Shown piece by piece: positions 24,121 through 62,687 of a DNA stretch of 64,000 bases (its first letter is position 1; each line of letters opens with the position of its first letter). Both the position numbers and the translations under genes were made by a program. Location of the stretch: assembly GCF_000759445.1 (NCBI RefSeq), contig NZ_JRMB01000001.1, positions 1,116,001 through 1,180,000 on the forward strand, read 5' to 3'. The notes below the pieces were generated by a model. The model did no database searches. It worked only from the letters and a program-made list of their open reading frames with translations, and was not told the origin of the DNA. Source of the stretch: Pseudomonas lutea (GTDB lineage: Bacteria; Pseudomonadota; Gammaproteobacteria; Pseudomonadales; Pseudomonadaceae).

Positions 24121-24477
24121 GAGATCAAAATCAAGATCAAGATCAAGGGCTTCGGCCTAACGGCCTCGGGTTTCGCCTTCGGCGAGTTACTTGGAAACAG
24201 CACCCCAAGTAACCAAGGGTGCTTGCTCCTGGTTTGGCCCCTCCTTCGTCGGGGTTCCTTCACTCCGGTCTTGCTCCGTGGGCCCGCGCCGAACGGACAT
24301 CCCTGTCCTGACGGCGCTCTCGCCGCATCCATGCGGCTCGGCCCACTGCGCAAAACCTGCGCTCAGCCTGCACCCAAGTCGCGATTGGCGGTGGATGGAA
24401 TGGCTGTGTATGAAGATCAAAAGCGGATCACAAGCAGAAGCGAAGGCGAAGGCGAAGGCGAAGGCGAAGGCGAAGGT
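24121..24477 (+). repeat. GATC-rich repeat element, copy 1
   Basis: The core runs from GGCTTCGGCCTAACGGCC at 24148 to about 24410. It contains a stem GTTACTTGG/CCAAGTAAC (24186-24194 with 24205-24213). The left end is four 6-bp units (ATCAAA/ATCAAG, 24124-24147). The right end begins with 11-bp-spaced GATCA motifs and turns into GAAGGC repeated five times plus GAAGGT (24442-24477). The same core occurs inverted at 24778-25121 and again at 62103. The long ORFs inside it have no family support. Confidence 0.9.
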
Positions 24478-24524
24478 AGCTTGGCGGTTTCCCGGCTGGA
24501 GCTGGGTCCAATAACGCAGCGCGT

Positions 24525-24606
24525 GCAGTCAGTGGGACCGGCTTCAGCCGGGAAGCTCTTGACCTGCGTTTTTTGATCGTCCCCACGCTCCGCGTGGCAC
24601 CGATCA
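24525..24606. repeat. Two short palindromic repeats
   Basis: GTGGGACCGGCTTCAGCCGGGAAG near 24533-24556 is one arm of the repeat family seen paired at 40241 and 62687. GATCGTCCCCACGCTCCGCG at 24577-24596 belongs to the longer palindrome seen complete at 56560-56666. Confidence 0.7.
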
Positions 24607-24624
24607 ACTGGCCGGGTGCAGCCC

Positions 24625-24714
24625 TGTAGGAGCCGGCTTGCTGGCGAACGCGATGGGTCAGGTATAGATAGGGTGGATGACGAAATGCATTCGCCAGCAA
24701 GCCGGCTGCTACAG
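24625..24714. repeat. REP doublet
   Basis: TGTAGGAGCCGGCTTGCTGG and its reverse complement face each other across about 45 bp. The doublet lies between the two inverted copies of the GATC-rich element. Confidence 0.9.
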
Positions 24715-24777
24715 AAAATGCAATCAATCCGCAATGCCGTACAAACGCCACCCAGCCGCCTGCGTATCCTCTACTGG

Positions 24778-25121
24778 TGATCTGCTTTCGATCTGCTTTT
24801 GATCTGCTTCTGATCTTCATATGCAGAAAGTCCAGACACCGCCAATCGCGACTTGGGTGCAGGCTGAACGGAGGTTTCGGGGAGTGGGCCGAGCGGCATG
24901 GATGCCGCGAGAGCCGCCCCCCGCCATGGATGGCGGATGGCGGCGGGCCCACGGAGCGAGACCGGAGTGAGGGTACTCCGACGAAGGAGGAGCCCAACCA
25001 GGAGCAAGCACCCTTGGTTACTTGGGGATGGTGCGACTTTCGACTTTTCCAAGTAACTCGCCGAAGGCGAAACCGAGGCCGTTAGGCCGAAGCCCTTGAT
25101 CTCGATCTAGATCTCGATCTT
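24778..25121 (-). repeat. GATC-rich repeat element, copy 2 (inverted)
   Basis: Read on the minus strand it matches copy 1 through most of the core, with a divergent stretch at about 24900-24950. At its start are four 6-bp units (GATCGA/GATCTA type, 25098-25121). At its end are 11-bp units of the form GATCARAAGCA (about 24779-24816). With copy 1 it brackets a REP doublet in an inverted-repeat arrangement. No gene is supported inside. Confidence 0.88.
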
Positions 25122-25140
25122 AAGCCACAGCAGCCCACAA

Positions 25141-26061
25141 TCACGGCATGGGCCGCGTCTCCTGCGACATAAACTCCGTAATCCGCGAACGCAACCAGCG
25201 CTCCGCAGGATCGTTATCGTGAACACCCGCCCAGACCATCGACAACTCGGCAGGCTCGATCGGGAATGGCGGATCTTCCGCACGCAGCGCGCAGCCCTCC
25301 ACCAACGCGCAGGCGGCATAGTCGGGCACGGTCGCGATCATCTCGGTACCCGCCAGCAGCGCGCGCAAACCGCTGAATTGGGGAACCGCCACCACCACCC
25401 TTCTCGCCCGGCCGACTTTCGCCAGATCGAGATCAATGTTCCCGCTCAGGTCGCCGGAAAACGACACCATCGTATGCGGCCGCGAACAGAACTCATCCAG
25501 CGTCAGCGGCTCCGGTCGCTTGTCGCCGCGCAGCACCTTGACGCCGATGTCGCGCAGCTTCTTGCGCTTGGCATTGGCAGGCAGCTCGGTGGTGTAACTG
25601 ATCCCCACCGAGATTTCGCCAGACGCCAGCAGCGCCGGCATCAACAGAAAGTTGGCGCGACGCACCACAACGATAATCCCCGGCGCCTCTTCGCGAAGAC
25701 AATTGAGCAGTGGCGGGAACAGACCAAACTCGGCGTCGTCCGACAAACCGATGCGGAACACGTCACAACTGGTCGCCGGATCGAATTCCTTGGCCCGGCT
25801 GACCGCGCCGGAAATCGTATCCAGCGCCGGCTGCAGCTCCTTGAGAATCGCCAGCGCCCGCGCTGTCGGTTCCATTGCCCGCCCATTGCGCAACAGCAAC
25901 GGGTCGTCGAACAGATCGCGCAAACGCGCCAGGGCAGCACTGATCGCCGGCTGCCCCATGAACAGCTTCTCCGCCACCCGGGTCAGATTGCGTTCGAACA
26001 TCAACGCTTCAAAGATCACCAACAGGTTCATGTCGACGCGGCGCAGGTCGTTGCGGTTCAT
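25141..26061 (-). CDS. LysR-family transcriptional regulator
   Basis: The 306-residue regulator begins MNRNDLRRVDMNLLVIFEALMFERNLTRVAEKLFMGQPAISAALARLRD, the N-terminal winged helix-turn-helix of LysR proteins, followed by a periplasmic-binding-protein-like effector domain from about residue 95. It has the normal family length. It is on the same strand as the DoxX/amidohydrolase operon but separated from it by 1.1 kb of repeats. Whether it controls that operon is uncertain. The effector is unknown. Confidence 0.92.
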   Translation of the reverse strand: MNRNDLRRVDMNLLVIFEALMFERNLTRVAEKLFMGQPAISAALARLRDLFDDPLLLRNGRAMEPTARALAILKELQPALDTISGAVSRAKEFDPATSCDVFRIGLSDDAEFGLFPPLLNCLREEAPGIIVVVRRANFLLMPALLASGEISVGISYTTELPANAKRKKLRDIGVKVLRGDKRPEPLTLDEFCSRPHTMVSFSGDLSGNIDLDLAKVGRARRVVVAVPQFSGLRALLAGTEMIATVPDYAACALVEGCALRAEDPPFPIEPAELSMVWAGVHDNDPAERWLRSRITEFMSQETRPMP

Positions 26062-26201
26062 TCAGCGATTCCGGGATAGGCGTTTTCGGGAGGCCTGACT
26101 ATGCCAGACCGGCGCATGAAGACACAGCCGAAGACGGCGCGTCTTGAACATCAGTGCTGTTGATCACCTGCCCGCTTCACTCGGCGATCCCACGGCGGCG
26201 C

Positions 26202-26627
26202 TCAGCAGGCATGCAGGCTCTGCGGGGCAAGGCGCACGGTGCAGGCCGGGCGCGCCATGGTGCGACGCCAACTGAACGGCGTGATCCCCACCACGCGGGT
26301 AAAGACCCGGGTGAAATGCGACTGATCGGCGAAGCCGCAGTCCAGGCTGATCTGCGAAATGCTCAAGATCGAGTCGCCGAGCAACGCCTTGGCCTTCTCC
26401 AGGCGCATCTGCAAAAACCAGTCCCGTGGGGACAACCCGGTGTTTTTCTTGAACGCCCGGGAGAAGTGACTGCGTGACAGCGAACATTCGGCGGCGATAC
26501 GGGCAATGGACAGACCTTTGTCCATCTGGCTGGACATCAGGTCCTTGGCTCGGCGCTCCTGCCACGGCGACAAGGCGACCCGCTCAAGCATCGATTCAGG
26601 GTGAAGGGAGGGGGTGAATGCGGTCAT
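26202..26627 (-). CDS. Short AraC-family transcriptional regulator
   Basis: The 141-residue product is essentially only the AraC DNA-binding domain: two helix-turn-helix units, LSIARIAAECSLSRSHFSRAFKKNTGLSPRDWF and LSISQISLDCGFADQSHFTRVFTRVVGITPFSWRR. There is no sensory domain, as in SoxS- or MarA-like regulators, so activity may follow protein level. GGAG lies 8 nt before the ATG at 26627; the GTG three codons earlier is less likely. It is divergent from the HD-domain gene, and a large inverted repeat lies between the two. Confidence 0.88.
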   Translation of the reverse strand: MTAFTPSLHPESMLERVALSPWQERRAKDLMSSQMDKGLSIARIAAECSLSRSHFSRAFKKNTGLSPRDWFLQMRLEKAKALLGDSILSISQISLDCGFADQSHFTRVFTRVVGITPFSWRRTMARPACTVRLAPQSLHAC

Positions 26628-26702
26628 TCCAGGCACTCCAGCTTTGCAGTTGGCGGTCAGTGGAGTCTGCGCAGAGCGGTTCTTAAAGTCCTTCTCGGGG
26701 TA

Positions 26703-26774
26703 TTAAACGTTCTGAATAGTTGTACGACGACGTGCATCCCGGCGGTGCACCGGCGCACCCTTCAGAACATTTAA
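26703..26774. promoter_or_regulatory. Wide inverted repeat between araC-like and HD genes (candidate operator)
   Basis: TTAAACGTTCTGAA (26703-26716) and TTCAGAACATTTAA (26761-26774) are inverted repeats matching at 13 of 14 positions and separated by 44 bp. The half-site size and the position between divergent genes fit paired regulator sites. Binding by the adjacent AraC-type protein is an inference. Confidence 0.5.
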
Positions 26775-26852
26775 GGCGCCGCCAAGGACCGCCATGCGCC
26801 CGAGGGTTAGCGTGTGTGCTCCTAAGAGTCGGTTCGCTGCGAGGGACGGCAC

Positions 26853-27497
26853 GTGACCACCCGATATGTCGCTGGAATTCTGATGCCTGACGGGGCGACG
26901 GCCCGTGCCGCAAGCGATTTGATGCGCGACCACCAGCCCGATCTGTTGTTGAACGCCGCGTGCCGGACATTCGTCTTCGCCAGTTTGCTGGGCCACAGCC
27001 GGGCATTGCGCTTCGACCCGGAGCTGCTGTTCATCGCCGCACTGTTTTTGCGCATCGGCATCACCCGCCTTTACGCTGAGTCGCAGCAACGTTTCGAAGT
27101 CGACAGCGCTGACGCCGCCGCTCAGTTCCTGCGCGGTCACGGTCGCACTTTGGAGGACATTGGCCAGGTGTGGGACGCCATCGCGCTGCACACCACGCCC
27201 GGCATTGCACAGCACAAAGCACCGCTGACCGCCCTGCTCTGCGCGGCTGTCGAGACAGACCTGACCGGCGCGCACTGCGAATGCTTCAGCCCGACCGCCC
27301 AGGCCCTCGTACTGGCGGCGTACCCGCGCGAAGCGGGTTTCAAATTCAAGTTTCTGCACGCCATGGCGCTGGGCCAGGTCCACCGTCCCCAGTCCACCGT
27401 CGGCACTGCCAATGCCGACGTCCTGGCTTTCTACACCCATCGCCTGAATGCCGGCGGGTTCTGCGAACGGTTATTGGCCTCGACATGGCCGTATTAA
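26853..27497 (+). CDS. HD-domain family protein with the metal-binding HD pair missing
   Basis: The 214-residue protein aligns by eye with cyanamide-hydratase-like HD phosphohydrolases: LLLNAACRTFVFASLLG, ELLFIAALFLRIGITRLY, FEVDSADAAAQFLRGHG, VWDAIALHTTPGIA. The metal ligands expected in LLNHxxR and AALLHDIG are replaced (NAAC at 34-37; L66 R67 in place of His-Asp). Only the later His in the ALHTT segment remains. It is therefore probably catalytically inactive, perhaps a binding or regulatory protein. The GTG start at 26853 is preceded by GAGGG. It is divergent from a single-domain AraC regulator. Confidence 0.72.
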   Translation: MTTRYVAGILMPDGATARAASDLMRDHQPDLLLNAACRTFVFASLLGHSRALRFDPELLFIAALFLRIGITRLYAESQQRFEVDSADAAAQFLRGHGRTLEDIGQVWDAIALHTTPGIAQHKAPLTALLCAAVETDLTGAHCECFSPTAQALVLAAYPREAGFKFKFLHAMALGQVHRPQSTVGTANADVLAFYTHRLNAGGFCERLLASTWPY

Positions 27498-27524
27498 GCC
27501 GCCCGGATCGCCCGCGAACGCGCG

Positions 27525-29561
27525 TTACCCGACGATGGGCAACGTGAACACGAAGGTCGCTCCGCCGAAGCGCGCCGGCATCGCGTAGAGGTGGCCGCCA
27601 TGGGCGATGACGATGGACTGACAGATCGCCAGGCCCATGCCCATGCCCATGCCTTTGTCTTTGGTGGTGAAAAAGGCGTCGAACAACTTGTCCCGGTATT
27701 GCGGGTCGATGCCGCGTCCGGTGTCTTCGACGCTGACCACCACATAGTCGTCGCTCACCACTTCACTGGTGATCGACAGGCGCCGCAGGACGTGATCGCC
27801 CGCGCTCATGGCGTCCAGCGCGTTGAGGATCAGGTTCAACAGCACCTGCTGCAACTGCACGCTGGAAGCACAGACCCGCGCGGGCGAGCAGGTCAGGTGT
27901 GTCGTCATCAGTACGCGCTGCTGTTCCACCTCCACTCCGGTCAGCGCGACCACGTGTCGTATCACGTCGTTGACCCGCAGCCGTCGGCGGTGATGCGGCC
28001 CTTGCCGGGCCAGGCTTTGCAGGGCGTGGACGATTTCCCCGGCACGTTTGCCTTCGGCAACGATGTCGCGCAGCGCGGACAGCGCTTCTTCCACTTGCGG
28101 GGCTTCACGATTGAGCCAGCGGATGCCGGCCGCAGCGTTGGACACCAGGGAAGCCAGTGGCTGATTGATTTCGTGGGCGATCGACGCCGCCAGCTCGCCC
28201 ATGACCGTGGCCTGGGCAACGTGGGCCAGCCGGGTGCGGGCACTGCGCAAGGCGTTTTCGACGTCCCGCCGTCGCGCGTTTTCCTGCTCCAGCTGATGGT
28301 GCAGGCGCGCGGTTTCGAGGGAGATCGCCGCCTGGCTGGTGAGCAGTTCCAGCACCTCGGCACGACACACTGTGAACACCCCCGGGGCGAGGTTGTTTTC
28401 CAGGTAGAGCACGCCAAGCACCCTGCCCTGTCTGACCAACGGCACGCACAGCGCCGAGCGCACCGGGTGCTGGCGCACGTATTCATCGGTGGCGAAGTAA
28501 GCGTCGGCCATGACATCGTCCAGCACCAGACGCTGACGCGTGCGCATCACCCGGTAGAGGATCGACAACGGCAGGTGGTGCTTGTCGGGGACCGTGTCCA
28601 CCAGCTCGATGCGCAGGCCTTCGTCCCCGCCCTGGCCAGCCGCGCAGATGATCGGTGCCTCGTCCTTGACCAGCAGCAGCAATGCCCGTTGCGCGCCGGC
28701 GTGGAGGATGGTGTTGCTCAGCAGCGCCTCGATCAAACGGTCCTGTTCGTGTTCATCACGCAGCGCGTGGGCCGATTTCATCAGCGACGACAGGTCCAGC
28801 GCATCGCGCCCTCCCGCCAGACTGGTCACTCCGAGGACCGAGGGCGCTGACGTTGGCCCGTTGGAAGGCGCCGCGCCTGACGAGCGCCAGGCCGTAGCAG
28901 CCGAACCCTGCCAGGGCGTGGTCGTGTCCGCAGCGTACCGCGCCGGCGTCAGGTCGTATTGCCCGTGCAGCGGCAGATCGGGGATGTCGCCCAACTGCTG
29001 CCACTGCCGCAGCATCTCCGCCAGATCCCGCTGAAGACCGGCCGCGCTCTGGTAGCGGTCATCGGGGTTTTTGGCGATCAGGCGGTGCACAAGGTCGGCA
29101 AGTGGCTCAGGGATGTCCCCGCGATGCTGAGTCAACGGCGGCGGTATGCGGGCCACGTGGCAATACACCCACTCGACGGCATCCTTGGCAGAGAACGGCA
29201 GCCGGCCGGCCAGCCACTCGTAAAAGGTCATGCCCAATGCGTACAAATCACTGCGCTGGTCAGCCTGGCGCTGGACCCGCCGCGCTTGCTCGGGCGCCAT
29301 GTAGGCGAGCGAGCTTAAGATCGGGTCGGACGCCGGCAATGCCGACGCAGAATGCACATCGACGCTCAGGCCGAAGCCGCTCAGCTGGATCCCACCGTTC
29401 GGGTCTTCGATGAGGTTGTCAGGCCTGATGTCGCGGTGCAGCAGGCCGGCCTCGTGAACACCGGCCAAAGCGGCCGTCGCAGCCATCGCCCGCTGAATAA
29501 AGCGTTCGATGGGCAGCGGCTCGCCAGGCGGGTTATCTGGCCAGACAGGCAAGCCGATCAC
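27525..29561 (-). CDS. Hybrid sensor: truncated Ser/Thr pseudokinase, GAF domain, histidine kinase
   Basis: The 678-residue protein has three parts. Residues 1-200 are the C-lobe of a Ser/Thr kinase, with HRDIRPDN at 42-49, AYMAPEQ at 86-92 and SDLYALG at 104-110. The DFG motif reads GFG and the ATP-binding N-lobe is absent, so kinase activity is unlikely. A GAF domain covers about 270-420. A histidine kinase follows, with the H-box SIAHEINQP (H463), NLILNALDAM and DTGRGID ahead of a Gly-Met-rich G2 region (KGMGMGMGLAI). There are no membrane segments. It starts at a GTG within the 3' end of the response regulator gene (29-nt overlap). Full-length relatives are much larger and carry an intact kinase and an ATPase module. 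Confidence 0.85.
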   Translation of the reverse strand: MIGLPVWPDNPPGEPLPIERFIQRAMAATAALAGVHEAGLLHRDIRPDNLIEDPNGGIQLSGFGLSVDVHSASALPASDPILSSLAYMAPEQARRVQRQADQRSDLYALGMTFYEWLAGRLPFSAKDAVEWVYCHVARIPPPLTQHRGDIPEPLADLVHRLIAKNPDDRYQSAAGLQRDLAEMLRQWQQLGDIPDLPLHGQYDLTPARYAADTTTPWQGSAATAWRSSGAAPSNGPTSAPSVLGVTSLAGGRDALDLSSLMKSAHALRDEHEQDRLIEALLSNTILHAGAQRALLLLVKDEAPIICAAGQGGDEGLRIELVDTVPDKHHLPLSILYRVMRTRQRLVLDDVMADAYFATDEYVRQHPVRSALCVPLVRQGRVLGVLYLENNLAPGVFTVCRAEVLELLTSQAAISLETARLHHQLEQENARRRDVENALRSARTRLAHVAQATVMGELAASIAHEINQPLASLVSNAAAGIRWLNREAPQVEEALSALRDIVAEGKRAGEIVHALQSLARQGPHHRRRLRVNDVIRHVVALTGVEVEQQRVLMTTHLTCSPARVCASSVQLQQVLLNLILNALDAMSAGDHVLRRLSITSEVVSDDYVVVSVEDTGRGIDPQYRDKLFDAFFTTKDKGMGMGMGLAICQSIVIAHGGHLYAMPARFGGATFVFTLPIVG

Positions 29562-30150
29562 TCATCTTCAACAGCTCGATCACGTTGGGCGCGTTCATTT
29601 TGGTCAAGACGTGCTTTTTGTGGACCTTGGCCGTCACTTCGCTGGTGCCCAGCTCAACGGCAATCTGCTTGTTCATTTTGCCGGTGATGAGCAGCGCCAT
29701 GACTTCGCGTTCGCGCGGCGTGAGGCTTTCATAGCGCGTCTTGACGCAAGCGGTGAGGCAGCGCTCGCTCATGCTTGAGGCATCGCTGATCAGCGCTTCG
29801 CGCACCAGCTCCAGCAGTTGCTCCGGCTCGAAGGGTTTGGTGAGGAATTCCCGGGCCCCGGCCTTGATGGCACGCACCGACATGGCGATGGTGCCGTAGC
29901 CGGTCATGAAGATGATCGGGAACGTGTGGCCGCGCGACAGCAAAGCCTGCTGCAGATCGAAGCCGGTGCCATGGGCCAGGTTGACGTCCAGCAAGAGACA
30001 GGTAGGCACTGGCGCCAGCGGGCCGGCGAGGAAGGCCTGAGCGCTGTCAAACACCTCGCAGGCGATGTCAGCGGAGTGCAACAGACGCTGCAGCGAGGTA
30101 CGTATGGCGGCGTCATCGTCCACCACATAAACCTTGGGGGTCACGCTCAT
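29533..30150 (-). CDS. FixJ/NarL-type response regulator
   Basis: The 205-residue protein has a receiver domain with the acidic pair VVDDD, phosphoacceptor Asp in CLLLDVNLAHGTG, conserved Thr in FMTGYG and Lys in LTKPFEP. A LuxR-type helix-turn-helix follows (LTPREREVMALLITGKMNKQIAVELGTSEVTAKVHKKHV). It is very likely the partner of the histidine kinase encoded next. The start at 30150 (MSVTPKVYVVDDD) lies 16 bp after the upstream gene; an in-frame ATG at 30204 would overlap that gene. Confidence 0.92.
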   Translation of the reverse strand: MSVTPKVYVVDDDAAIRTSLQRLLHSADIACEVFDSAQAFLAGPLAPVPTCLLLDVNLAHGTGFDLQQALLSRGHTFPIIFMTGYGTIAMSVRAIKAGAREFLTKPFEPEQLLELVREALISDASSMSERCLTACVKTRYESLTPREREVMALLITGKMNKQIAVELGTSEVTAKVHKKHVLTKMNAPNVIELLKMSDRLACLAR

Positions 30151-30166
30151 GAAGGGTTCCGTCGCA

Positions 30167-31693
30167 TCAACGGCCAACGGCCAGGGCTCTTTGATGCCGC
30201 GCATGATACCCGTCCGGCCCCATCGGCACAGCCCTGACGCTTTGCAACGTGCTCAGGGCGGATGGCGGGTCGCAGTCTTGCAAGCGCGGCGCGCCGGCAT
30301 CGGTCCGTACGGTTTGTTCGGCGTCAATGGCCAACAGGCAGGCGCGGTTGGCCGAGAGCATGCGGTAGAAGCGGAAAGGCCCCTGGGCCGTAACCATCAG
30401 CAACGATTGGGTGGCCAGGCGGACGATGCAGTTCATGATGCGCGCACGCGGCAGACGGGTTCGCTGCAAGGCATCGCATGCGCGTTCAAGGGTAAAGCGC
30501 CCTTCCAGCTCGGCGAGCTGGCGCAGCACTGTACGCTCTTCACGCCCCAGCAAGCGCAGGCTCCAGGCCAGTGAAGCCTGCAGCGTCTGCTGACGCGGCG
30601 GTGCCGTGCGCAACGAAGCCGACAGCAGATGCAGGCTGCCGTCCAGGCTCGCCACCAGCTGATACAGCCCCAGCGCGCAGGCCCGGGCCGCCGCCATCTC
30701 CAGCGCCAGCGGCATGCCGTCGAGGCGGCGACAAATCTCCCCCACCAGTTCGACGCTGTAATCATCCAGCTCGGCGTTGCCGCCGGCGGCGCGATGACTG
30801 TCCAACGCCCGCCACTGACGCAGAAACAGCTGTGCGGCATCACTGTGCAGGATCATTTTTCGCGATGCATTGCGCCCCGGGACCTCCAGCGGCGGCACCT
30901 GCAGGCTGCGCTCGCCGGCGATGCGCAACGGCTCGCGACTGGTGGCCAGGGCGCGCACGGCGGGCGCACCCCGTAGAATCACTTCAAGCAGGCCGGCAGT
31001 GCTTTCCACCAAGTGTTCGCAGTTGTCCAGAATGATCAGGCCCGGGCGTTGCTGCAGATGGCGGATCAGGCCTTGCAGGTCTGCTTCGCCGTGACTGCAA
31101 TCCATGCCGACAGAACTGGAAAATGCCTCCAGCAACAGCTCGTCGCATTGCAGTTGGGCCAGCGGCACGAAGTACACGGGAGTGGTTCCGGCGTCGATCA
31201 GCGTCTGGCCGAATTCGGCGGCAAGGGCGGTTTTGCCGACGCCGCCGGGACCGATCAGCGTGACCAGCACGCAGCCATTGTCCAATGTGCCGCTCACCTC
31301 ATCGAGCAAGGCCTGGCGTCCGAGCAAGGCGATACGCGCAGGCAAACGATGATGACAACTGACCCCCTGCAGCACGCTTGGGCCGGGGCTTTCGGTGTCG
31401 GCGCTTTCGCCGCCCAGCAGTACGTAGCCACGGCCAGGCACGGTACGGATTCGCTCGCGATCACTGCCCAATGCCTTGCGCAGGGCCGAGATATGCACCT
31501 GCAGATTGTTCTCTTCAACCACGGTGTCCGGCCAGACACTCTGAAGGATCAGCTCCTTGCTCACTAACTGACCTTGATGGCGCAACAGCACCTCGAGAAT
31601 GTCAAAAGCGCGCGTACCGATGCGCATCGCTACGCCGTCTTTGAACACGTCTCTGTGCTCGCGGGAAATCATCGTCTGACCGAGACTTATCAT
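30167..31693 (-). CDS. Winged-helix transcriptional regulator with an NTPase domain
   Basis: The 508-residue protein combines an OmpR-type winged helix (residues about 15-95, ending RTVPGRGYVLLG) with a STAND/AAA-like ATPase domain. The latter has Walker A GPGGVGKT at 148-155, a Walker B in LIILDNCEHLV, and the sensor-like ATSREPLRIAGE. Many relatives continue with several hundred residues of helical repeats; this one stops early, so the ligand-sensing end is short or missing. It is the first gene of a three-gene unit with the FixJ regulator and the hybrid kinase. Confidence 0.87.
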   Translation of the reverse strand: MISLGQTMISREHRDVFKDGVAMRIGTRAFDILEVLLRHQGQLVSKELILQSVWPDTVVEENNLQVHISALRKALGSDRERIRTVPGRGYVLLGGESADTESPGPSVLQGVSCHHRLPARIALLGRQALLDEVSGTLDNGCVLVTLIGPGGVGKTALAAEFGQTLIDAGTTPVYFVPLAQLQCDELLLEAFSSSVGMDCSHGEADLQGLIRHLQQRPGLIILDNCEHLVESTAGLLEVILRGAPAVRALATSREPLRIAGERSLQVPPLEVPGRNASRKMILHSDAAQLFLRQWRALDSHRAAGGNAELDDYSVELVGEICRRLDGMPLALEMAAARACALGLYQLVASLDGSLHLLSASLRTAPPRQQTLQASLAWSLRLLGREERTVLRQLAELEGRFTLERACDALQRTRLPRARIMNCIVRLATQSLLMVTAQGPFRFYRMLSANRACLLAIDAEQTVRTDAGAPRLQDCDPPSALSTLQSVRAVPMGPDGYHARHQRALAVGR

Positions 31694-32105
31694 TTCATGC
31701 AGTCCTTGGAAGTGGAGTCGCAGACCCTGATTCGCGGCATGTCATCCGGGCGGGCTTACCTCCCGAGACACGCAGCGCAGCTATCCATTTTTAACAAGCG
31801 CCCATCTAATCAGTTAAAAGCAATTGCGGATATTACCTGTAGGGATAGTTACCCCCGAGTGAGGGGGTCAGGCTCGCCGCCCTGAAGCTGTGCATCGTCG
31901 TGCCTTACCTGACTCCCATCGCCGGGCTGTTTTGCCCGGAGTATAGAGCCCGCGCTCGCCGTAAACAGCCGCCACAGCGTTGCGCCCAACGCAAAAGCGT
32001 TTTGCGCCCAGCGCCTATTCTTCCCGCCGCGGCTGCGCTCTATCGTCGACGCATGACGGATGACCCGACCGGTCTCCACCCTGCCATCGACGGGAGCCAC
32101 TGCAT
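31694..32105. promoter_or_regulatory. Divergent intergenic region, no gene
   Basis: It separates the winged-helix regulator (minus) from the MFS transporter (plus). It is AT-rich at about 31785-31840 and holds two short hairpins (ACCCCC/GGGGGT at 31851-31868 and CCGGGC/GCCCGG at 31922-31939). It must hold both promoters; I cannot place them with confidence. Confidence 0.35.
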
Positions 32106-33326: not shown

Positions 33327-33348
33327 GGGTCACGGCACAGGCGCAAAT

Positions 33349-33384
33349 GAAAACGCCCTGGCAATTAGACCGGGGCGTTTTTAT
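33349..33384. terminator. Bidirectional rho-independent terminator
   Basis: AAAACGCCCTGG pairs with CCGGGGCGTTTT (one mismatch), with T runs on both strands. It lies between the converging MFS gene (end 33326) and the molybdenum hydroxylase gene (end 33408), so it can serve both. Confidence 0.88.
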
Positions 33385-33407
33385 TGCGAGCTCTGAATTG
33401 AGTTCTT

Positions 33408-42088: not shown

Positions 42089-42380
42089 GTAGGAGCCGGG
42101 TTGCTGGCGAACAGATCCGTCGGTGGATAACGTCGGCGCTGACCTACCGCATTCGCCAGCAAGCCGGCTCCTACAGATGAACGCGGTCAGTCAGGGATAT
42201 CGGTGGTGGATGAGCCTCCGCGTTCGCCAGCAAGCCGGCTCCTACAGATGAACGCGGTTAGTCAGCGACATCGGTGGTGGATGACCCACCGCGTTTGCCA
42301 GCAAGCCGGGTCCTACAGGTGGACGCGGTGAGTGAGCGACACCGTGGATGACCCACCGCGTTTGCCAGTCAAAAGACCTT
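42089..42380. repeat. REP doublet and 71-bp tandem array
   Basis: A doublet at 42089-42176 is followed by same-orientation REP copies starting at 42151, 42222, 42293 and 42360. The period is 71, 71 and 67 bp, with a shared tail (CTACAGATGAACGCGGT, then ATCGGTGGTGGATGA). The last copy is cut off a few bases in. It fills the gap between the DedA and hemB genes, both of which end here; no gene is seen. Confidence 0.92.
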
Positions 42381-45899: not shown

Positions 45900-46810
45900 C
45901 GCTGAATAATGCGGTCAGTTGTAGGAGCGCAGCATTCCGGCAGAGAGACCGTGGGACTGGGAATGCGGTCAGTTCCAGCAGCGCGCTTGCCCGCGAAAAA
46001 TAGAACATCCCCCAGAACTGGGTCGACTGTACGCGCCATTCGCGAGCATCTCCCCGTTAGTCGGATGAAATTCCATTCCGTAGGAGCCGGCTTGCTGGCG
46101 AACCCGTCGTGTCAGTCGACGTCTATATCGCTGGTTGACCGGGTTCGCCAGCAAGCCGGCTCCTACAGGTTTTGTGCCGCGTTCGGGATCTGTGCCAGCC
46201 TGCGAATCAGCCTGAAACAGCCAGGCACACCACCGTCAATCGAATGAAATCCCCTCCTAATAAGACCGGCTCCTACACCGGCAGCGTTCCGCCAGAGACC
46301 GTGCAATTGAAGAAACGCGATCTATTCTAGGAGCGCGCTTGCCCGCGAAAAATAGAACATCCCCCAAAGCTGTGTCGGCTGTACGCGCCATTCGCGGGCA
46401 CCTCCCCGTTAGTCGGATGAAATCCCATTCTTCAGGAGCCGGCTTGCTGGCGAACCCGTCGTGTCAGTCGACGTCTATATAGCTGGTTGACCGGGTTCGC
46501 CAGCAAGCCGGCTCCTACAGGTTTTGTGCCGCGTTCGGGATCTGTGCCAGCCTGCGAATCAGGCTGAAGCAACCAGGCACACCACCCCGTCTCCCCTCCC
46601 AATAAGAACCGCTCTGAACTGGCAGCGTTCCGGCAGAGACCGTCTGACTGGGAATGCGGTCAGTTCCAGGAGCGCGCTTGCCCGCGAAAAATAGAACATC
46701 CCCCAGAGCTGTGTCGGCCGTACGAGCCATTCGCGGGCAAGCGCGCTCCTACAGCAACGGCGTTCCGGCAGAGAGATACCGATCGTACCCGCGCCGCGTG
46801 GGAACGATCA
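45900..46810. repeat. Composite repeat array of two REP families, about 350-bp period
   Basis: The motif GCGCGCTTGCCCGCGAAAAA recurs at 45981, 46333 and 46672 (352 and 339 bp apart). Between these copies lie two complete doublets of the TAGGAGCCGGCTTGCTGGCGAA family (46080-46167 and 46433-46520) inside long near-identical flanks (GTCGACGTCTATAT, GGATCTGTGCCAGCCTGCG). The whole composite was duplicated in tandem and the last copy closes with an inverted GCGGGCAAGCGCGCTCCTAC. No protein gene is supported in this 959-bp gap. Confidence 0.92.
46781..46809 (-). terminator. Palindrome after the chemoreceptor gene (possible terminator)
   Basis: GATCGTACCCGCG and CGTGGGAACGATC form a near-perfect stem 20 bp beyond the stop codon of the gene ending at 46829. 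The T run is weak, so the function as terminator is uncertain. It is also a short member of the palindrome family complete at 56560-56666. Confidence 0.45.
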
Positions 46811-52486: not shown

Positions 52487-52529
52487 TGAGACTTCCGCTG
52501 ACCTGCATTTGCCCCACGGAGCGCGCGCC

Positions 52530-56447: not shown

Positions 56448-56509
56448 GACGGGCAGTTTGCGCGGAACCCGGCGTGCGCAGTAGTCAGTGGTGTGCTGAT
56501 CGTCCCCAA

Positions 56510-56910
56510 CGGCCTCTTCCCGGCTGAAGCCGGTCCCACAAGGGTCCGCGTCGCTGGCTGATCGTCCCCACGCTCCGCGTGGGAATGCCGCCCGGGACGC
56601 TCCGCGTCAATCGCTCTGACGCAGAGCGTCAGCAAATGCATTCCCACGCAGAGCGTGGGAACGATCGCAAGCACATGCGTGCCCCGTACGATCAGTTGTT
56701 CAGACCCCGCGCTGTCGCGCAGGCAACACAGTCCCTGTGGGACCGGCTTCAGCCGGGAAAGCGTCGGATGTTCCGCCGCAGATGGATAGCGTACTCAAGG
56801 GCCTCTTCCCGGCTGAAGCCGGTACCACAATGGTTGGCGTCGTTCCGCAACGCTGTAACCTATAAGCCGGTAGCCTGTAAGCCTGTAAGCCTGTAAGCCT
56901 GTAAGCCGGT
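56510..56910. repeat. Mixed palindromic repeats and an 8-bp tandem array
   Basis: The 599-bp gap after the substrate-binding gene holds TTCCCGGCTGAAGCCGGT-type arms at about 56517, 56737 and 56803. It also holds a 107-bp palindrome at 56560-56666 (GATCGTCCCCACGC facing GCGTGGGAACGATC) with an inner CTCTGACGCAGAG stem. GCCTGTAA is repeated four times at 56873-56904, flanked by diverged copies. No gene is supported here; the rest of the gap up to 57046 is unremarkable. Confidence 0.88.
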
Positions 56911-57046
56911 ACGCCGATAAGTCCGTAGGGCCTTAAGCCGGGAATCCTGAGCGCCGCTGACGGGCTCAATCCCACATCCGTTCCAACTATCACCGCCTCG
57001 TACAGTCACACAGTCATTCCCGCCCATTGACTGATGACGAATCCGG

Positions 57047-58417
57047 ATGAGTTTCATTCTTTGCATGACCGTCTTCGGTGTCCTGCTGATGCTGCTGGCA
57101 CTGACTTCTTCCTACCTGCGCTGGCTGCCGGTGACCACCTCGGCGGTGTGTCTGGCGTTTGGCGCGGCGATTGGCCCGTGGGGCCTGGACATCGCGCAGC
57201 TGGATGTGCGCGACGCGCGCCACTGGCTTGAACGGCTGACTGAAATTGCCGTGTTGTTTTCACTGTTCAACACCGGCATCAAGCTGCGTCTCCCACTGCA
57301 CCGGGGCGCCTGGTATTCAGCGTATCTGCTGGCCGGGCCAGTGATGCTGGCGACCATTGCCGGCGTCAGTCTGGTCGCGCACTACTGGCTTGAGCTGTCA
57401 TGGCCGATCTCACTGTTGCTCGGCGCAATGCTCTCGCCCACCGACCCGGTGCTGGCCGGGCTGGTACAGGTCAACAGCGCCCAGGATCTGGACCGGGTGC
57501 GCTTCGGCCTGTCCGGCGAGGCCGGGCTCAACGATGGCACGGCGTTTCCGTTCGTGATCTTCGCCTTGATGTTCATCACCCATGGCTTCTCGGATTTCAA
57601 CTGGACCCAGGCCTGGCTGCTGAAGAACATCATCTGGGGCGTGCCGCTCGGATTGCTGCTCGGCTATGGACTCGGCCGCGGCGTCGGCCACTTGATGATC
57701 TACCTGCGCATCAAGAACGCCGACAGTACCCAGTCGCCCAATGACTTTCTTGCCCTCGCGCTGATCGCCATCGCCTACGTGACCGCCGAAGGCCTTGGCG
57801 CCTACGGGTTTCTGGCGGTGTTCGCGGCCGGCATCGGCTTGCGCCATGCCGAGGTCAAGACCACGCAGTCAGAGGTCCCGGCCGAGCATGTGGCCATTCC
57901 TGTACTGGGCCACACCCACAGCGATCCCGAGTCGGCCATCATGGGTGATCGCGAATCGCTGTCGGACAGCCAGCTGGCGGCCGGGGTAATGATGGGCGAC
58001 ATGATGGTCTTCGGCAGCCTGGTGGAGCGCGCCATGGAAGTGTTGCTGATCACGCTGCTGGGCGCCGCACTCGCCACCTACTGGGACTGGCGCGCTGTCG
58101 GGTTGGGTCTGGCATTGTTCTGCATCATCAGACCGCTAAGCGTGTGGCTGATGATCAGCGGACGCCTGCTGACTCGGCCGCAGAAGGCACTGGTCGGCTG
58201 GTTCGGCATTCGCGGCATCGGCACCCTCTATTACCTGTGCTACGCGCTCACCCACGGCTTGCCGGCCGAAGCGGTACACACCACCATCAGTCTGACGCTC
58301 TCGGTGGTGGCGCTGAGTATTCTGGTACACGGCATCAGCATTCAGCCGCTGTTGGAGTGGTACGAGCGCAGCATCGCCGGTGACGCAGAGGCTGAAAAGA
58401 CCGACCGGGCGGACTGA
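57047..58417 (+). CDS. Cation:proton antiporter, CPA1 (NhaP) type
   Basis: The 456-residue membrane protein has about twelve helices. Its transport core has MLSPTDPVLAG (130-137) and GEAGLNDGTAFP with N162-D163, the ion-binding Asn-Asp pair of the CPA1 group. It exchanges Na+ or K+ for H+ at the inner membrane. A C-terminal half continues to an Arg/Glu-rich tail. It is a single gene with a hairpin downstream at 58509. Confidence 0.9.
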   Translation: MSFILCMTVFGVLLMLLALTSSYLRWLPVTTSAVCLAFGAAIGPWGLDIAQLDVRDARHWLERLTEIAVLFSLFNTGIKLRLPLHRGAWYSAYLLAGPVMLATIAGVSLVAHYWLELSWPISLLLGAMLSPTDPVLAGLVQVNSAQDLDRVRFGLSGEAGLNDGTAFPFVIFALMFITHGFSDFNWTQAWLLKNIIWGVPLGLLLGYGLGRGVGHLMIYLRIKNADSTQSPNDFLALALIAIAYVTAEGLGAYGFLAVFAAGIGLRHAEVKTTQSEVPAEHVAIPVLGHTHSDPESAIMGDRESLSDSQLAAGVMMGDMMVFGSLVERAMEVLLITLLGAALATYWDWRAVGLGLALFCIIRPLSVWLMISGRLLTRPQKALVGWFGIRGIGTLYYLCYALTHGLPAEAVHTTISLTLSVVALSILVHGISIQPLLEWYERSIAGDAEAEKTDRAD

Positions 58418-58508
58418 CTGGGTTTCAAAATCTCATCCGCTTCAGCTGGCATAGCCGCGTGATAGACAGTGTCGATGAAGCCATCAGAACAAGCGATTGG
58501 ACGCTACA

Positions 58509-58550
58509 GACCCCGATCGGTAGCGTGCTCACTAATTGATCGGGTCTTTT
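58509..58550 (+). terminator. Possible rho-independent terminator after the antiporter
   Basis: GACCCCGATC (58509-58518) pairs with GATCGGGTC (58538-58546) with one bulged C and is followed by TTTT. The loop of about 19 nt is long. It is the only structure noted in the 306-bp gap between the antiporter and the formate/nitrite transporter. Confidence 0.5.
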
Positions 58551-58723
58551 GGGCGCCTTCTGTCCTGCGGTTTAACGTCGCAGCGGCGCGCTCATCGGCG
58601 ATCGGCGCCGTGTCGGCTGACACCTTCGCGCAACAAGACTGGATGCTTGAACCCCTCCTTCATTACCGCGTCGCTGGCTCAGACAGTCGCGACGCCGTTC
58701 ATTGCGTGCGAGCCCGGAAGCCT

Positions 58724-59551
58724 ATGTCCATCAATACTCCCCAGCAGATCGCCGAGATCACCATCGAAGCCGGCGTGAAGAAGTCTCACATGGCCACTCC
58801 GGCGATTCTGGTGCTGGGTTTTCTGGCTGGCGCGTTCATCGCCCTGGGCTTTTTGCTGGACATCCACGTCAGCACCATGATCCCGACGCAATGGGCCTCG
58901 CTGGGTAACCTGCTGGGCGCTGCCGTATTCCCGATTGGCCTGATTCTGGTCATTCTGGCCGGTGGCGAGCTGCTGACCGGCAATATGATGAGCCTGCCAA
59001 CGGCCATGTTCGCCCGGCGCATCCCGTTATCGGCGGTGGTCCGCAACTGGGCGCTGGTGACGTTGGCCAACCTGCTCGGCGCGCTGTTCGTCGCTTATTT
59101 CTTTGGTCACGTCCTGGGCCTGACCGAAGGGGCCTATCTGGCAAAAACCCTGGCCATCGCCAAAGCCAAGGCCAGCGCTGACTTTTCGCAGGCCTTTATT
59201 TCCGGCATTGGCTGCAACTGGCTGGTGTGTCTGGCGGTCTGGTTGTCATATGCGAGCAAGGACGTCACCGGCAAGATCCTTGGCATGTGGTTCCCGATCA
59301 TGGCCTTCGTCGCCATCGGCTTTCAGCACGTGGTCGCCAACATGTTCGTGATCCCGGCGGGGATTTTTGCCGATGCCCTGAGCTGGACCGATTTCGTCGA
59401 AAACTTCGTCGCGGTGTTCCTGGGCAACGCCGTGGGGGGTGCAATTTTCGTCGGGCTCGCGTATTACGTGTCCTATTCCAAAGCCATTCAGGCTTCGGCC
59501 ACCGGCGCCCAGGCGGCGGTCATCGAACCACAGGCTGCCGGGAAGATTTAA
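58724..59551 (+). CDS. Formate/nitrite transporter family channel (FocA/NirC)
   Basis: The 275-residue protein has six membrane helices and the FNT motifs [22 protein letters not shown] and the second-half pore region [40 protein letters not shown] channels pass formate or nitrite as weak acids across the inner membrane. The start at 58724 is preceded by GGAAG; the in-frame region upstream looks non-coding. It lies 76 bp before moaA, and the pairing with molybdenum cofactor synthesis favours nitrite or formate metabolism. Confidence 0.92.
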
Positions 59552-59627
59552 CGCCGTACTCGCGGGCCGTCTATGCAGATGGCTCGCGCGCTGTTTCTGC
59601 CACGCAACACGCTGTCGAGAGGAAGTA

Positions 59628-60626
59628 ATGTCAGATCGAGTCCTGATGGACAGCTATTCACGCAAGGTTGATTACGTCCGCCTGTCGGTCACTGATCGCT
59701 GTGATTTCCGCTGCGTGTATTGCATGGCCGAGGAAATGACCTTCCTGCCGCGTCAGCAGATCCTCTCTCTCGAAGAAATCCATCAAGTGGCCGAGCGCTT
59801 CGTTGCGCTGGGCACCAAAAAGATTCGCCTCACCGGCGGTGAGCCGCTGGTGCGTTCCGGTATCGTCGGATTGTGCCGCAGCATCGCCGCCCTGCCCGGC
59901 CTGCGCGAACTGTGCATGACCACCAACGGCTCGCAACTCGACAAGCTCGCGGTGCCATTGTTCGAAGCCGGCCTCAAGCGCCTGAACATCAGCCTGGACA
60001 GCCTTGACCCTGCGCGTTTCAAGGAACTGACCCGCACCGGTGACCTGAGCAAGGTCATTGCCGGGATCGACGCCGCCAACGCGGCAGGCTTTCAGCGCAC
60101 CAAACTGAACTGCGTGGTGATGCAGGGGCGCAACGATCACGAGATCAACGACCTGGTGGCCTTCGCGATTGATCGCGGCGTCGACATCACCTTCATCGAA
60201 GAAATGCCACTGGGGGTTATAAGCGAGCACAGCCGCGCCGAGTCGTTCTTCTCCAGTGAGCAGGTGCGCGAGCGTATCGCCGAGCGCTACACCCTGGTGC
60301 ACTCCACCGAGTCGACTTCCGGGCCGTCGCGCTACTGGCGGGTGGCCGAGGCGCCGAATATCCGCATCGGCTTTATCTCGCCCCACAGCCACAACTTCTG
60401 CGCAACCTGTAATCGAGTGCGCGTCACGGTCGAGGGCCGCCTGCTGTTGTGCCTGGGCAACGAACACTCGGCGGATCTCAAAGCCGTGCTGCGGGCCAAC
60501 CCCGGGCAACCGGAGAAGCTGGAAAACGCCATCGTTAACGCCATGCAGCTCAAGCCGTGGAAGCACAACTTCGAGCTCAACGACGATGTGCAAGTGGTGC
60601 GCTTCATGAACATGACCGGGGGCTGA
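59628..60626 (+). CDS. moaA: MoaA, GTP 3',8-cyclase (molybdenum cofactor synthesis)
   Basis: This radical SAM enzyme makes 3',8-cyclo-7,8-dihydro-GTP, the first step of molybdopterin synthesis. The 332-residue protein has the SAM cluster cysteines C25, C29 and C32 (CDFRCVYC) and the C-terminal second cluster ([22 protein letters not shown]). It also has the TGGEPLVR and ISLDSLD motifs. It ends in GG (NMTGG), the usual MoaA C-terminus. GAGAGGAAG precedes the ATG. The molybdenum hydroxylase at 33408-36130 would need its product. Confidence 0.96.
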
Positions 60627-60675
60627 GGGCTTCCTGAAGCTCCCCCCCGCTCAGGCGCAGCTGAACCGTCGCGCC

Positions 60676-61005
60676 CTAGCCTTCCTGCACCAGGGTTTCA
60701 AACGCTTCTTCAAGGTCGCTTCCGCGAGTGGGCCTGACCAATCTCAACACTTCCTGCCCGTCACGCATCCACACCAGCGTGGGCCACAGCTTCACTCTGA
60801 ACGAACGCCCCAATTGGCGACCGCTGCCATCTTCGATCTTGATGTGCCGCACCTGCGGGTAATCGGCGGCGACCTTCTCGATCAACGGCTGCGCCGCGGT
60901 GCAGTGCCCGCACCAGTTGGTGCCGAAGTCGACCACGACGCAACCGGGCATGGCATCCAGTTCGGCGCGCGACAGGGTTTCGGGGAGATAGGGTTCGGTG
61001 GGCAT
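60676..61005 (-). CDS. Thioredoxin-family protein
   Basis: The 109-residue thioredoxin fold has the redox motif WCGHC (C32 and C35) in VVVDFGTNWCGHCTAAQPLIEK and the cis-Pro segment VKLWPTLVWM. The motif has GH, as in protein disulfide isomerases, where classical thioredoxin has GP. There is no signal peptide, so it is cytoplasmic. It is convergent with moaA. Confidence 0.9.
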   Translation of the reverse strand: MPTEPYLPETLSRAELDAMPGCVVVDFGTNWCGHCTAAQPLIEKVAADYPQVRHIKIEDGSGRQLGRSFRVKLWPTLVWMRDGQEVLRLVRPTRGSDLEEAFETLVQEG

Positions 61006-61169
61006 GGCGGTGCTCTCTCTCTCTGCCAGGACGATGTTGTCAGTCTAGCGACGCGTGTTGCCGATGGGTATCGCCAGCACGCTTGAGTTTGCAGGCCGGC
61101 ATCCTGGTTGGCCAGGCATCGGTGTGCCGACGGTTACCGCAACCGTCGGCACACGCCCTTACAAGCGGG

Positions 61170-61991
61170 TCAGCCCTGGATGAAGCCCAGCAGGATTTCG
61201 TTGATCTCTTCATGCTGCACGGTGCACATGCCGTGGGAGCCGCCTTTGACGACGTGCAGGGTCGAGCCTTTGACCAACTCGTGGCTCTTGTAGCCAGACG
61301 CGGCAATCGGCACGATCTGGTCGTCGTCGCCATGCAGGATCAGAGTCGGCACGTCGATTTTTTTCAGGTCTTCGGTGAAGTCGGTTTCCGAGAAGGCCTT
61401 GATGCAGTCGAACTCGCCCTTGACGCTGCCGAGCATGCCGATGGACCAGAACGAGTCGATGGCGCCCTGTGAGGTTTTCGCGCCGTCGCGGTTGAAGCCG
61501 AAGAACGGAACGGCGAGGTCCTTGAAGAATTGCGAGCGGTCGGCGGTGAAGCCGGCGCGGATGCCATCGAAGACGTCCATCGGCAAGCCTTCGGGGTTGG
61601 CCGCGGTTTTCAGCATGATCGGCGGTACGGCGCCAATCAGCACGGCTTTGGCGACGCGGGCAGTGCCATGGCGGCCGATGTAGCGGGCGACTTCGCCGCC
61701 GCCGGTGGAGTGGCCGATCATGATGGCGTCGTTGAGGTCCAGCGCTTCGAACAGTTCGGCGAGGTCGTCGGCATAGGTGTCCATGTCGTTGCCTTCCCAG
61801 GTCTGGCCGGAGCGACCGTGGCCGCGGCGGTCGTGGGCGATGACGCGGTAGCCTTTCTGGCCGAGGAAGAGCATTTGCGCATCCCATGCGTCGCCGTCGA
61901 GCGGCCAGCCATGGGAGAAGACGATCGGCTGGCCGGTGCCCCAGTCTTTGTAGAAGAGTTCGGTGCCGTCTTTCAGGGTCAGGGTGGACAT
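61170..61991 (-). CDS. Alpha/beta hydrolase (chloroperoxidase/arylesterase type)
   Basis: The 273-residue protein has the lid-less esterase/perhydrolase layout: oxyanion region [16 protein letters not shown], nucleophile S95 in GHSTGG, acid in [12 protein letters not shown] and His in KGGSHGMC. It is a soluble cytoplasmic hydrolase of unknown natural substrate. The start at 61991 ([20 protein letters not shown]) is the family's usual N-terminus. It is a single gene. A 165-bp gap separates it from the thioredoxin gene downstream. Confidence 0.92.
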
Positions 61992-62102
61992 GGGGCGCAA
62001 TCCTCAAGAGGGGGTTTGGGGGAAGGTTGAGCGTAGTCGGTGATTCAGATGCTGGATTGCTGATATGTGCTTGTTTGCGTATGGCAGGGTCTGAGGCAAA
62101 CC

Positions 62103-62687
62103 AAGATCTACAGCTAGATCAATATCTACAGCTAGATCAAGGTCAAAAGCGGTTCGGCCTAACGGCCTCGGGTTTCGCCTTCGGCGAGTTACTTGATAGA
62201 GCCCCAAGTAACCAAGGGCTTGTGCTCCTGGTTTGGCCCCTCCTTCGTCGGGGTTCCTTCACTCCGGTCTTGCTCCGTGGGCCCGCGCCGAACGGACATC
62301 CATGTCCTGACGGCGCTCTCGCCGCATCCATGCGGCTCGACCCACTGCGCAAAACCTGCGTTCAGCCTGCACCCAAGTCGCGTTTTGCGGTGTCTGGAAT
62401 TTTTGCGGATGAAGAGCAGAAGCAGAGCAACAGCAGAGCAACAGCAGAGCAACAGCAGAGCAACAGCAGAGCAACAGCAGAGCAACAGCAGAGCAACAGC
62501 AGAGCAACAGCAGAGCAACAGCAGAGCAACAGCAGAGCAACAGCAGAGCAACAGCAGAGCAACAGCAGAGCAACAGCAGAGCAACAGCAGAGCAACAGCA
62601 GAGCAACAGCAGAGCAACAGCAGAGCAACAGCAGAGCAACAGCAGAGCAAGTGCGGAGCAAATGCGGAGCAAAAGCAGAGCCAAAGC
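62103..62687 (+). repeat. GATC-rich repeat element, copy 3, with an expanded 11-bp minisatellite
   Basis: The core (about 62151-62410) matches copies 1 and 2. The left end is two 18-bp units (ATCTACAGCTAGATCAAT/AAG at 62106-62141), each three 6-mers long. The right end is AGAGCAACAGC repeated about twenty times without change (62425-62645) and then a few degenerate units to 62687. Because 11 is not a multiple of three and no stop codon arises, long artificial ORFs appear on both strands. No gene is supported in the gap 61992-62887. Confidence 0.93.

What the first reader, a model, noticed from the sequence alone, without database searches (positions are those of the whole stretch)
24121..62687. 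A dispersed repeat element with a different short tandem array at each end of each copy
Three copies (24121-24477 plus, 24778-25121 minus, 62103-62687 plus) share a core of about 270 bp. All carry at one end an array with a 6-bp period rich in GATC (ATCAAG; GATCTC/GATCTA; ATCTACAGCTAGATCAAT, which is three 6-mers). At the other end all start from an 11-bp seed related to GATCARAAGCA. That seed has stayed as a few 11-mers in copy 2, turned into GAAGGC hexamers in copy 1, and expanded to about twenty AGAGCAACAGC units in copy 3. So the array positions are conserved while their sequence is rewritten copy by copy. This points to a mechanism acting at the ends, such as slippage or templated addition during insertion.
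Basis: seen in the sequence. Interest (0 to 1): 0.72.

Follow-up and report, generated by a model that had tools for sequence, protein, structure and literature searches.

The report
Repeat encoding a structured CsrA-site RNA
The repeat turns out to be one of about fifty scattered copies in this Pseudomonas genome of an element whose complementary strand looks like a conserved folded RNA with two hairpins shaped like landing sites for the global regulator CsrA/RsmA, while the short arrays at its ends appear to be ordinary, fast-changing tandem repeats.

Summary
In detail: three copies, a shared ~270-bp core, a short array at each end. The arrays are not the main story. The genome holds 50 matches to a model of the core; 103 of 149 sampled genomes of the genus, own included, hold it. 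In this domain G-U cells outnumber A-C 85 to 5, pointing to the R strand as the RNA. Two hairpin loops stay CA-N-GGAUG (both in 47 of 53 copies), the core of the printed CsrA/RsmA loop motif, while stems vary. Rfam's TwoAYGGAY, a candidate CsrA-binding family, matches. A probable pseudoknot follows. Neighbouring R strands diverge (13 of 13 model pairs). The arrays are optional (at my score both in 10 of 106 copies, neither in 51) and differ between orthologous copies, so slippage after insertion explains them. Best reading: a dispersed, multi-copy TwoAYGGAY-type RNA, possibly an Rsm-protein decoy. Transcription and binding are unshown.

The parts
24122..24147 (+). copy 1, left hexamer array (AGATCA x4.3)
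24152..24167 (.). copy 1, terminal hairpin H1 (TCGGCC-TAAC-GGCCTC; inner four pairs well kept in the family, outer two often broken)
   Evidence: read; pair counts
24171..24192 (+). copy 1, near-invariant 22-mer with hairpin H2
   Evidence: C1:1140171-1140192
24187..24222 (-). copy 1, probable pseudoknot region on the R strand (GCACC..TTACTTGG..GGTGC..CCAAGTAA)
   Evidence: read; test on other copies
24232..24361 (-). copy 1, R-strand RNA domain (model R1, 157.2 bits)
24295..24308 (-). copy 1, CsrA-type hairpin GGACAGGGAUGUCC
24322..24337 (-). copy 1, CsrA-type hairpin GCCGCAUGGAUGCGGC
24413..24435 (+). copy 1, two 11-mer seed units (GATCAAAAGC, GGATCACAAGC)
24440..24476 (+). copy 1, GCGAAG hexamer array (x6.2)
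24778..24816 (-). copy 2, 11-mer array (TGATCTGCTTT x3.5 on +)
24869..24998 (+). copy 2, R-strand RNA domain (138.7 bits)
24886..24950 (+). copy 2, Rfam TwoAYGGAY RF01731 match (43.1 bits, gathering 43)
25098..25120 (-). copy 2, GATCTC/GATCTA array (12-mer x1.9)
62102..62141 (+). copy 3, left 18-mer array (x2.2)
62231..62360 (-). copy 3, R-strand RNA domain (159.4 bits)
62413..62681 (+). copy 3, AGAGCAACAGC array (x24.5)
62688..62754 (.). inverted REP pair next to the right array of copy 3
   Evidence: 62688-62707 +, 62735-62754 -

Best explanation
Shown: on the R strand a ~130-nt domain is kept by compensatory change across the genus, and two hairpin loops in it stay CA-N-GGAUG; a probable H-type pseudoknot and two terminal hairpins follow. 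Shown: 50 matches here, matches in 103 of 149 sampled genomes of the genus, positions largely shared with a related species, and neighbouring R strands that diverge. Inferred: the R strand is transcribed and its hairpins bind CsrA-family proteins (RsmA/RsmE-type; this genome has three CsrA-family loci), so the copies act as decoys or local binding platforms, as RsmX/Y/Z do from single genes. Inferred: the arrays are by-products. A 10-11 bp motif (GATCAANNGC) stands in the same orientation at both ends; slippage turns it into 11-mers, or into 6-mers after point changes, copy by copy and after insertion. Recombination between the two end motifs can delete the core and leave an array beside a REP.
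For: Copy number: 50 matches in the own genome; 103 of 149 genomes of the genus at E<=1e-4, own included, 50 of 149 with ten or more scored (my count, cap 23); in the class 2 of 143, one of them the own genome. Structure: A1, 60 copies from 4 genomes, 98.0% of cells paired, covariation 0.331 vs 0.122 shuffled and at most 0.093 slid; A2, 53 matches, 48 of them from other genomes, 97.1%, 0.530 vs 0.186 and 0.099, 28 of 36 pairs changed on both sides (shuffles 21.2). Strand: in the domain G-U 65 vs A-C 6 cells in A1, 85 vs 5 in A2. Loops: CANGGAUG in hairpin A 58 and B 59 of 60 (A1), 50 and 48 of 53 (A2); 140 and 138 of 142 in four near genomes. Printed consensus RUACARGGAUGU in hairpin loops (PMC7937890, passages); window copy 1 matches 11 of 12. 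Rfam TwoAYGGAY hits the R strand in 17 of 20 own loci (4 of 18 hits above gathering, all 43.1 bits) and in 20 of 20 chosen loci of other genomes (17 of 33 hits above gathering, best 65.7 bits over the full model). TwoAYGGAY was proposed as CsrA-binding (PMC4333381, passages). Pseudoknot: helices >=9 and >=5 bp in 35 of 46, 7.6% in shuffles. Pairs: 13 of 13 model pairs divergent here, 14 of 15 by the 22-mer; loci outside G000/G020: 16 divergent, 3 tandem steps, 0 convergent (my count). CsrA-family loci: 3. Arrays; core loss between end motifs at G020 ~4817 kb.
Against: No sigma-70-like promoter and no terminator placed to end the R strand were found at the window copies. No expression or binding data were available. 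Against the full 12-nt consensus only 38 of 60 (A1) and 5 of 53 (A2) copies reach 10 of 12, and below that shuffles do about as well; only the loop core is conserved. In A1 two of the five measures do not exceed shuffles (pairs with a change on both sides 14 vs 13.8; further pair types 32 vs 32.3). A2 was fitted to the model and made of the best-scoring match of each genome plus its neighbours, which favours it. In the pseudoknot helices of the 142 near copies the G-U balance leans slightly the other way (R-strand G-U 7 and 26, S-strand G-U 12 and 39 cells), and at a looser cut 41 of 46 distant copies pass but so do 47% of shuffles. The outer two pairs of H1 fail in 90 of 284 cells as neither Watson-Crick, G-U nor A-C. 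Some genomes have one or two matches and 46 of 149 none, which a genus-wide decoy role does not explain. The R strand usually runs toward the 3' end of the neighbouring gene (78 of 112). Selection on single-stranded DNA structure is not excluded.
Confidence: 0.58

Rival explanations
1. The R-strand fold is selected as single-stranded DNA: the element is a non-autonomous mobile element whose hairpins are read by a transposase, in the way REPINs and IS200/IS605 ends are.
For: Dozens of copies, many next to REP sequences (89 of 106 right windows contain a REP-like string); two of five sites without an element in G020 show no scar by eye.
Against: 40 of 45 placed sites have an element near the same place in G020, so movement is slow; ends are direct, not inverted, repeats in 87 of 106; three of the five empty sites are remnants of an old copy; the conserved CANGGAUG loops fit an RNA-protein site better.
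Confidence: 0.2
2. The structure works in cis as part of neighbouring transcripts: a 3'-end stabiliser, transcription barrier or terminator between genes, with no decoy role.
For: Left ends lie a median 47.5 bp from a called gene, and 78 of 112 of those genes end toward the element; a collapsed pair in G020 became a terminator-like hairpin. The slight S-strand lean of the pseudoknot helices would fit sense read-through.
Against: Sense read-through from those genes carries the complementary (S) strand, in which the domain's G-U pairs become A-C mismatches; 34 of 112 left neighbours start there instead.
Confidence: 0.2
3. The end arrays are added by the insertion process itself.
For: Array positions and periods are element-specific.
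Against: 51 of 106 copies have neither array above the cut; orthologous copies differ in array unit and length.
Confidence: 0.05

Closest known systems
TwoAYGGAY RNA (Rfam RF01731, clan CL00106)
   Same: Two neighbouring hairpins with AYGGAY-type loops inside a closing stem; R-strand copies match the model, up to 65.7 bits over its full length.
   Different: Most hits cover only the two-hairpin core (model positions about 45-113 of 168). Here a longer closing stem, a further hairpin and a probable pseudoknot are conserved, and it is a multi-copy repeat. Seven papers hold the name, five were listed; the passages naming it in all five do not mention a dispersed repeat.
RsmX/RsmY/RsmZ and CsrB/CsrC decoy RNAs
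   Same: Several GGA motifs, some in hairpin loops, in a short structured RNA (PMC12047976, passages).
   Different: Those are single genes (recalled); no RsmX/Y/Z family match was reported for the loci searched (E<=1, E<=0.1). No promoter identified here.
P. fluorescens intergenic repeat families R200, R178, R26 (Silby 2009, PMC2718517)
   Same: Size, copy number and place fit: R200 320 bp, 47 copies in SBW25; R178 101 bp with an internal 11-bp inverted repeat; R26 352 bp (passages).
   Different: Their sequences are in a supplement that could not be read, so identity is untested; the passages read describe hairpins and possible termination but no RsmA role.
REP / REPIN
   Same: Intergenic, dispersed, often directly adjacent to the right array.
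   Different: REPs are short palindromes; the core is ~270 bp and multi-hairpin.

Membership tests
TwoAYGGAY RNA (RF01731) | Score above the curated gathering threshold (43 bits) | tested here: met
   Met by part of the family: 4 of 18 hits in 20 own loci (all 43.1 bits); 17 of 33 hits in 20 chosen loci of other genomes, up to 65.7. In the window: copy 2 43.1 bits, copy 3 34.4 bits (L003), copy 1 no hit at E<=1.
TwoAYGGAY RNA (RF01731) | Two hairpins with AYGGAY loops | tested here: met
   CANGGAUG in both loops: 57 of 60 (A1), 47 of 53 (A2). N is U or G, rarely A, so AYGGAY holds to the letter when N is U and is varied when N is G.
CsrA/Rsm decoy RNA | Binds CsrA-family protein | not testable with these tools
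   No binding data; motif only.
CsrA/Rsm decoy RNA | Several GGA motifs, some in loops | tested here: met
   3 to 9 GGA per domain among the 53 copies listed, two of them in conserved loops in 47.
CsrA/Rsm decoy RNA | Own promoter, Gac-dependent | tested here: inconclusive
   No sigma-70-like site at the window copies; the GacA box (recalled) was not searched for.
REPIN | Short REP palindromes in an inverted pair as the unit | tested here: not met
   Core is ~270 bp with several hairpins; REPs lie beside it.
MITE | Terminal inverted repeats | tested here: not met
   The end motifs are direct repeats in 87 of 106 copies. Other terminal inverted repeats were not searched for with a tool.
MITE | Target-site duplication | tested here: inconclusive
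   Only two scar-free empty sites were seen, and their flanks are too diverged to define the junction.
Silby R200/R178 | Sequence identity to the published consensus | not testable with these tools

The most novel reading that the evidence does not exclude
Pseudomonas genomes carry a dispersed, vertically kept family of decoy RNA elements for RsmA/RsmE, up to dozens per genome, arranged as back-to-back pairs away from the replication origin; together they set or buffer the free Rsm protein level, so that what was filed as intergenic repeat DNA is a distributed part of the Gac/Rsm circuit.
Probability: 0.3. Interest if true: 0.9.

Novelty: new variant of a known kind. Interest (0 to 1): 0.7.

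Why it matters
High-copy intergenic repeats in Pseudomonas are usually treated as REP-like or mobile DNA. Here one such repeat appears to encode, on its overlooked strand, an RNA whose base pairs are defended across a genus and whose loops match the core of a global regulator's site. If bound, dozens of copies could titrate that regulator, and the question 'what are these repeats for' becomes a pull-down and an RNA-seq away. It also gives TwoAYGGAY, a family without a demonstrated role in the passages read, a well-populated host group in which to test it.

Tried and rejected
Insertion-coupled arrays: rejected. Protein coding: rejected, because core lengths differ by non-multiples of three. Plasmid or phage origin: no match in either collection by distant BLAST at E 1e-5. 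Promoter search: none found. A CRISPR-repeat hit at 24169 (19.8 bits, cut-off 38) and several microRNA hits far under their cut-offs are taken as chance. Two hits of the 19-base pattern in a Rhodobiaceae and a Lachnospiraceae record are not copies: no match to model R1 or TwoAYGGAY there. A strand-mapping mistake was corrected (all loci are in genome orientation).

Rows dropped and limits: one search kept 106 of 109 extracted cores; one search kept 142 of 144; one search chose 60 of 126 distinct domains for diversity; one search took 32 loci, the top match of each genome among them (L171 and L172 left out); one search took 20 of the 29 held loci of other genomes; one search took 47 of the 53 matches and counted 46 distinct; searches use 106 of 112 sites. 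Scoring caps of the genome search (40 or 23 matches per genome) make copy numbers outside the own genome lower bounds. One search covered 440 kb of G020 chosen by interpolation; 8 of 53 G000 sites could not be placed, and of the 40 'shared' sites three belong to pairs of which G020 shows one member.
Full report
What is in the window. The three copies, their ~270-bp core and their end arrays are real and at the stated places. Copies 1 and 2 face each other at 24.1-25.1 kb; copy 3 lies at 62.1-62.7 kb. The window is part of an unnamed 5.64-Mb genome, G000.

How many copies. A covariance model of the core's central 130 nt finds 50 places in G000, 47 of them at 130 bits or more. A 22-mer inside the core occurs 53 times with up to 3 mismatches, 47 exact. 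Three near relatives give at least 40 matches each (40 candidates scored per genome). In the class 2 of 143 match, own included.

Anatomy. The motif GATCAANNGC stands in the same orientation at both ends in 87 of 106 copies (control windows 0 of 106 at both ends, 10 at one).

The functional strand. Paired columns change together. On the complementary strand (R), 60 copies from four genomes keep 98.0% of cells paired, with covariation 0.331 against 0.122 in shuffles and at most 0.093 when slid; the plain counts of pairs changed on both sides (14) and of further pair types (32) do not exceed shuffles there. RNAalifold found nearly the same structure on its own (35 pairs). In 53 matches, 48 from other genomes than G000 and G020, the figures are 97.1%, 0.530, 0.186 and 0.099, and 28 of 36 pairs have changed on both sides against 21.2 in shuffles. 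In this domain the R strand shows 85 G-U and 5 A-C cells, and 65 and 6 in the near set; on S these would be swapped, so selection seems to see the R strand. Two cautions: the 53-row alignment was fitted to the model and holds best-scoring matches; and in the pseudoknot helices of 142 near copies the balance leans slightly to S (R 7 and 26, S 12 and 39 cells).

The loops. While stems change, both loops stay CA-N-GGAUG: both in 57 of 60 near and 47 of 53 wider copies. CsrA/RsmA proteins prefer RUACARGGAUGU in hairpin loops (PMC7937890, passages); copy 1's hairpin GGACAGGGAUGUCC matches 11 of 12 positions. Measured against the whole 12-mer the signal is weaker: 38 of 60 near but only 5 of 53 wider copies reach 10 of 12, and below that shuffles do about as well. 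Rfam's TwoAYGGAY matches the R strand in 17 of 20 own loci, 4 of 18 hits just above threshold, and in 20 of 20 chosen loci of other genomes, 17 of 33 hits above threshold, the best over the full model at 65.7 bits. Copy 1 itself has no TwoAYGGAY hit and copy 3 only 34.4 bits. A motif-annotation paper proposed TwoAYGGAY as CsrA-binding (PMC4333381, passages). The genome holds three CsrA-family loci.

The pseudoknot. Downstream on R, two helices in H-type order (in copy 1 GCACC..TTACTTGG..GGTGC..CCAAGTAA) are found with at least 9 and 5 pairs in 35 of 46 copies of other genomes against 7.6% of shuffles; at 7 and 4 pairs it is 41 of 46 against 47%. Among those 41 there are 31 different sequence pairs for each helix. 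No column-wise covariation test was run on it across the genus, so I call it probable.

Arrangement. In G000 all 13 neighbouring model matches closer than 2.5 kb have diverging R strands; by the 22-mer it is 14 of 15, the exception being a duplicated left end 68 bp apart. Loci outside G000 and G020 with two or more matches read as 16 divergent and 3 tandem steps, none convergent (my count). Left ends lie a median 47.5 bp from a gene and right ends 484 bp; 78 of 112 left neighbours end toward the element and 34 start there (genes called by my own simple codon-usage finder, which appears to have missed at least one gene of the window). Among the copies scored, none lies in a broad region around dnaA in three genomes, as printed for REPs (PMC3390384, passages).

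Age and turnover. 45 of 53 G000 sites could be placed in G020; 40 have an element nearby, 5 do not (read). Of those 5, one has lost the core between the two end motifs, leaving array and REP; one is a pair collapsed to a single terminator-like hairpin; one is a truncated core; two show no remnant that I could see. Orthologous copies are hardly more alike than others (0.867 vs 0.845), which suggests shuffling of old alternative modules.

The arrays. In 106 copies arrays above my score cut are left 22, right 43, both 10, neither 51. Periods are restricted: left 6 or 12 in all 22; right 11 (23), 6 (15) or 12 (3) of 43. In the 24 orthologous pairs printed the arrays differ in unit or length, including one case of the same six-base unit with about 12.7 copies in one species and about three in the other. 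Several of 23 copies of other genomes printed lack them by eye. Slippage of the end motif after insertion fits; addition during insertion does not.

What it most likely does. Shown: a conserved structured strand in many copies. Inferred: transcription, and binding of RsmA/RsmE-type proteins, making the copies decoys or local platforms. No promoter of the usual kind was found, and this is the weakest link. A suggestive lead: in P. putida, Rsm pull-downs recovered intergenic regions beside ISPpu8, one a long palindromic region (PMC7937890, passages); I could not test whether they are copies.

Known or new. TwoAYGGAY is known as a small candidate family, and P. fluorescens repeat families of fitting size and number were listed in 2009 (PMC2718517, passages). 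I found no paper linking a dispersed Pseudomonas repeat to TwoAYGGAY or to Rsm decoys in my searches (open-licence papers only, most seen as listings). I file it as a new variant of a known kind.

Noticed in passing
G020:C1 1.035-2.995 Mb; G000:C2 above 346 kb; G203:C1 below 1.5 and above 5.16 Mb: No scored copies in a broad region around dnaA (1.618 Mb, 1.821 Mb, 0.419 Mb), an origin-proximal desert like that printed for REPs. G020 and G203 lists were capped at 40 scored.
   Followed up: partly
G000 C1:652439-652614 (L090): Two facing copies collapsed into one another inside the core, leaving a short fused palindrome.
   Followed up: partly
G020:C1 around 5153.6 kb (L128): At the site of an element in G000, G020 keeps only GTCTGCCTAAGGGCAGAC flanked by A and T runs, a terminator-like relic, probably of a collapsed pair.
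   Followed up: partly
window 17681-18259, 42140-42368, 45944-46739: Other tandem arrays (units 238, 71 and 352 bp); the first two contain REP-like palindromes in their consensus unit.
   Followed up: no
window 56853-56921: An 8-bp CTGTAAGC tandem array close after REP matches, not linked to the core.
   Followed up: no
L189 2177-2262, L190 2194-2287: C4 antisense RNA matches above threshold near element copies in two other Pseudomonas genomes.
   Followed up: no
L324 (G345:C7), 861-978 (-) and 1501-1570 (+); L326: A genome of another family of the class has weak matches to the model, one pair again divergent, and a sub-threshold TwoAYGGAY hit of 40.6 bits; perhaps an independent member.
   Followed up: partly
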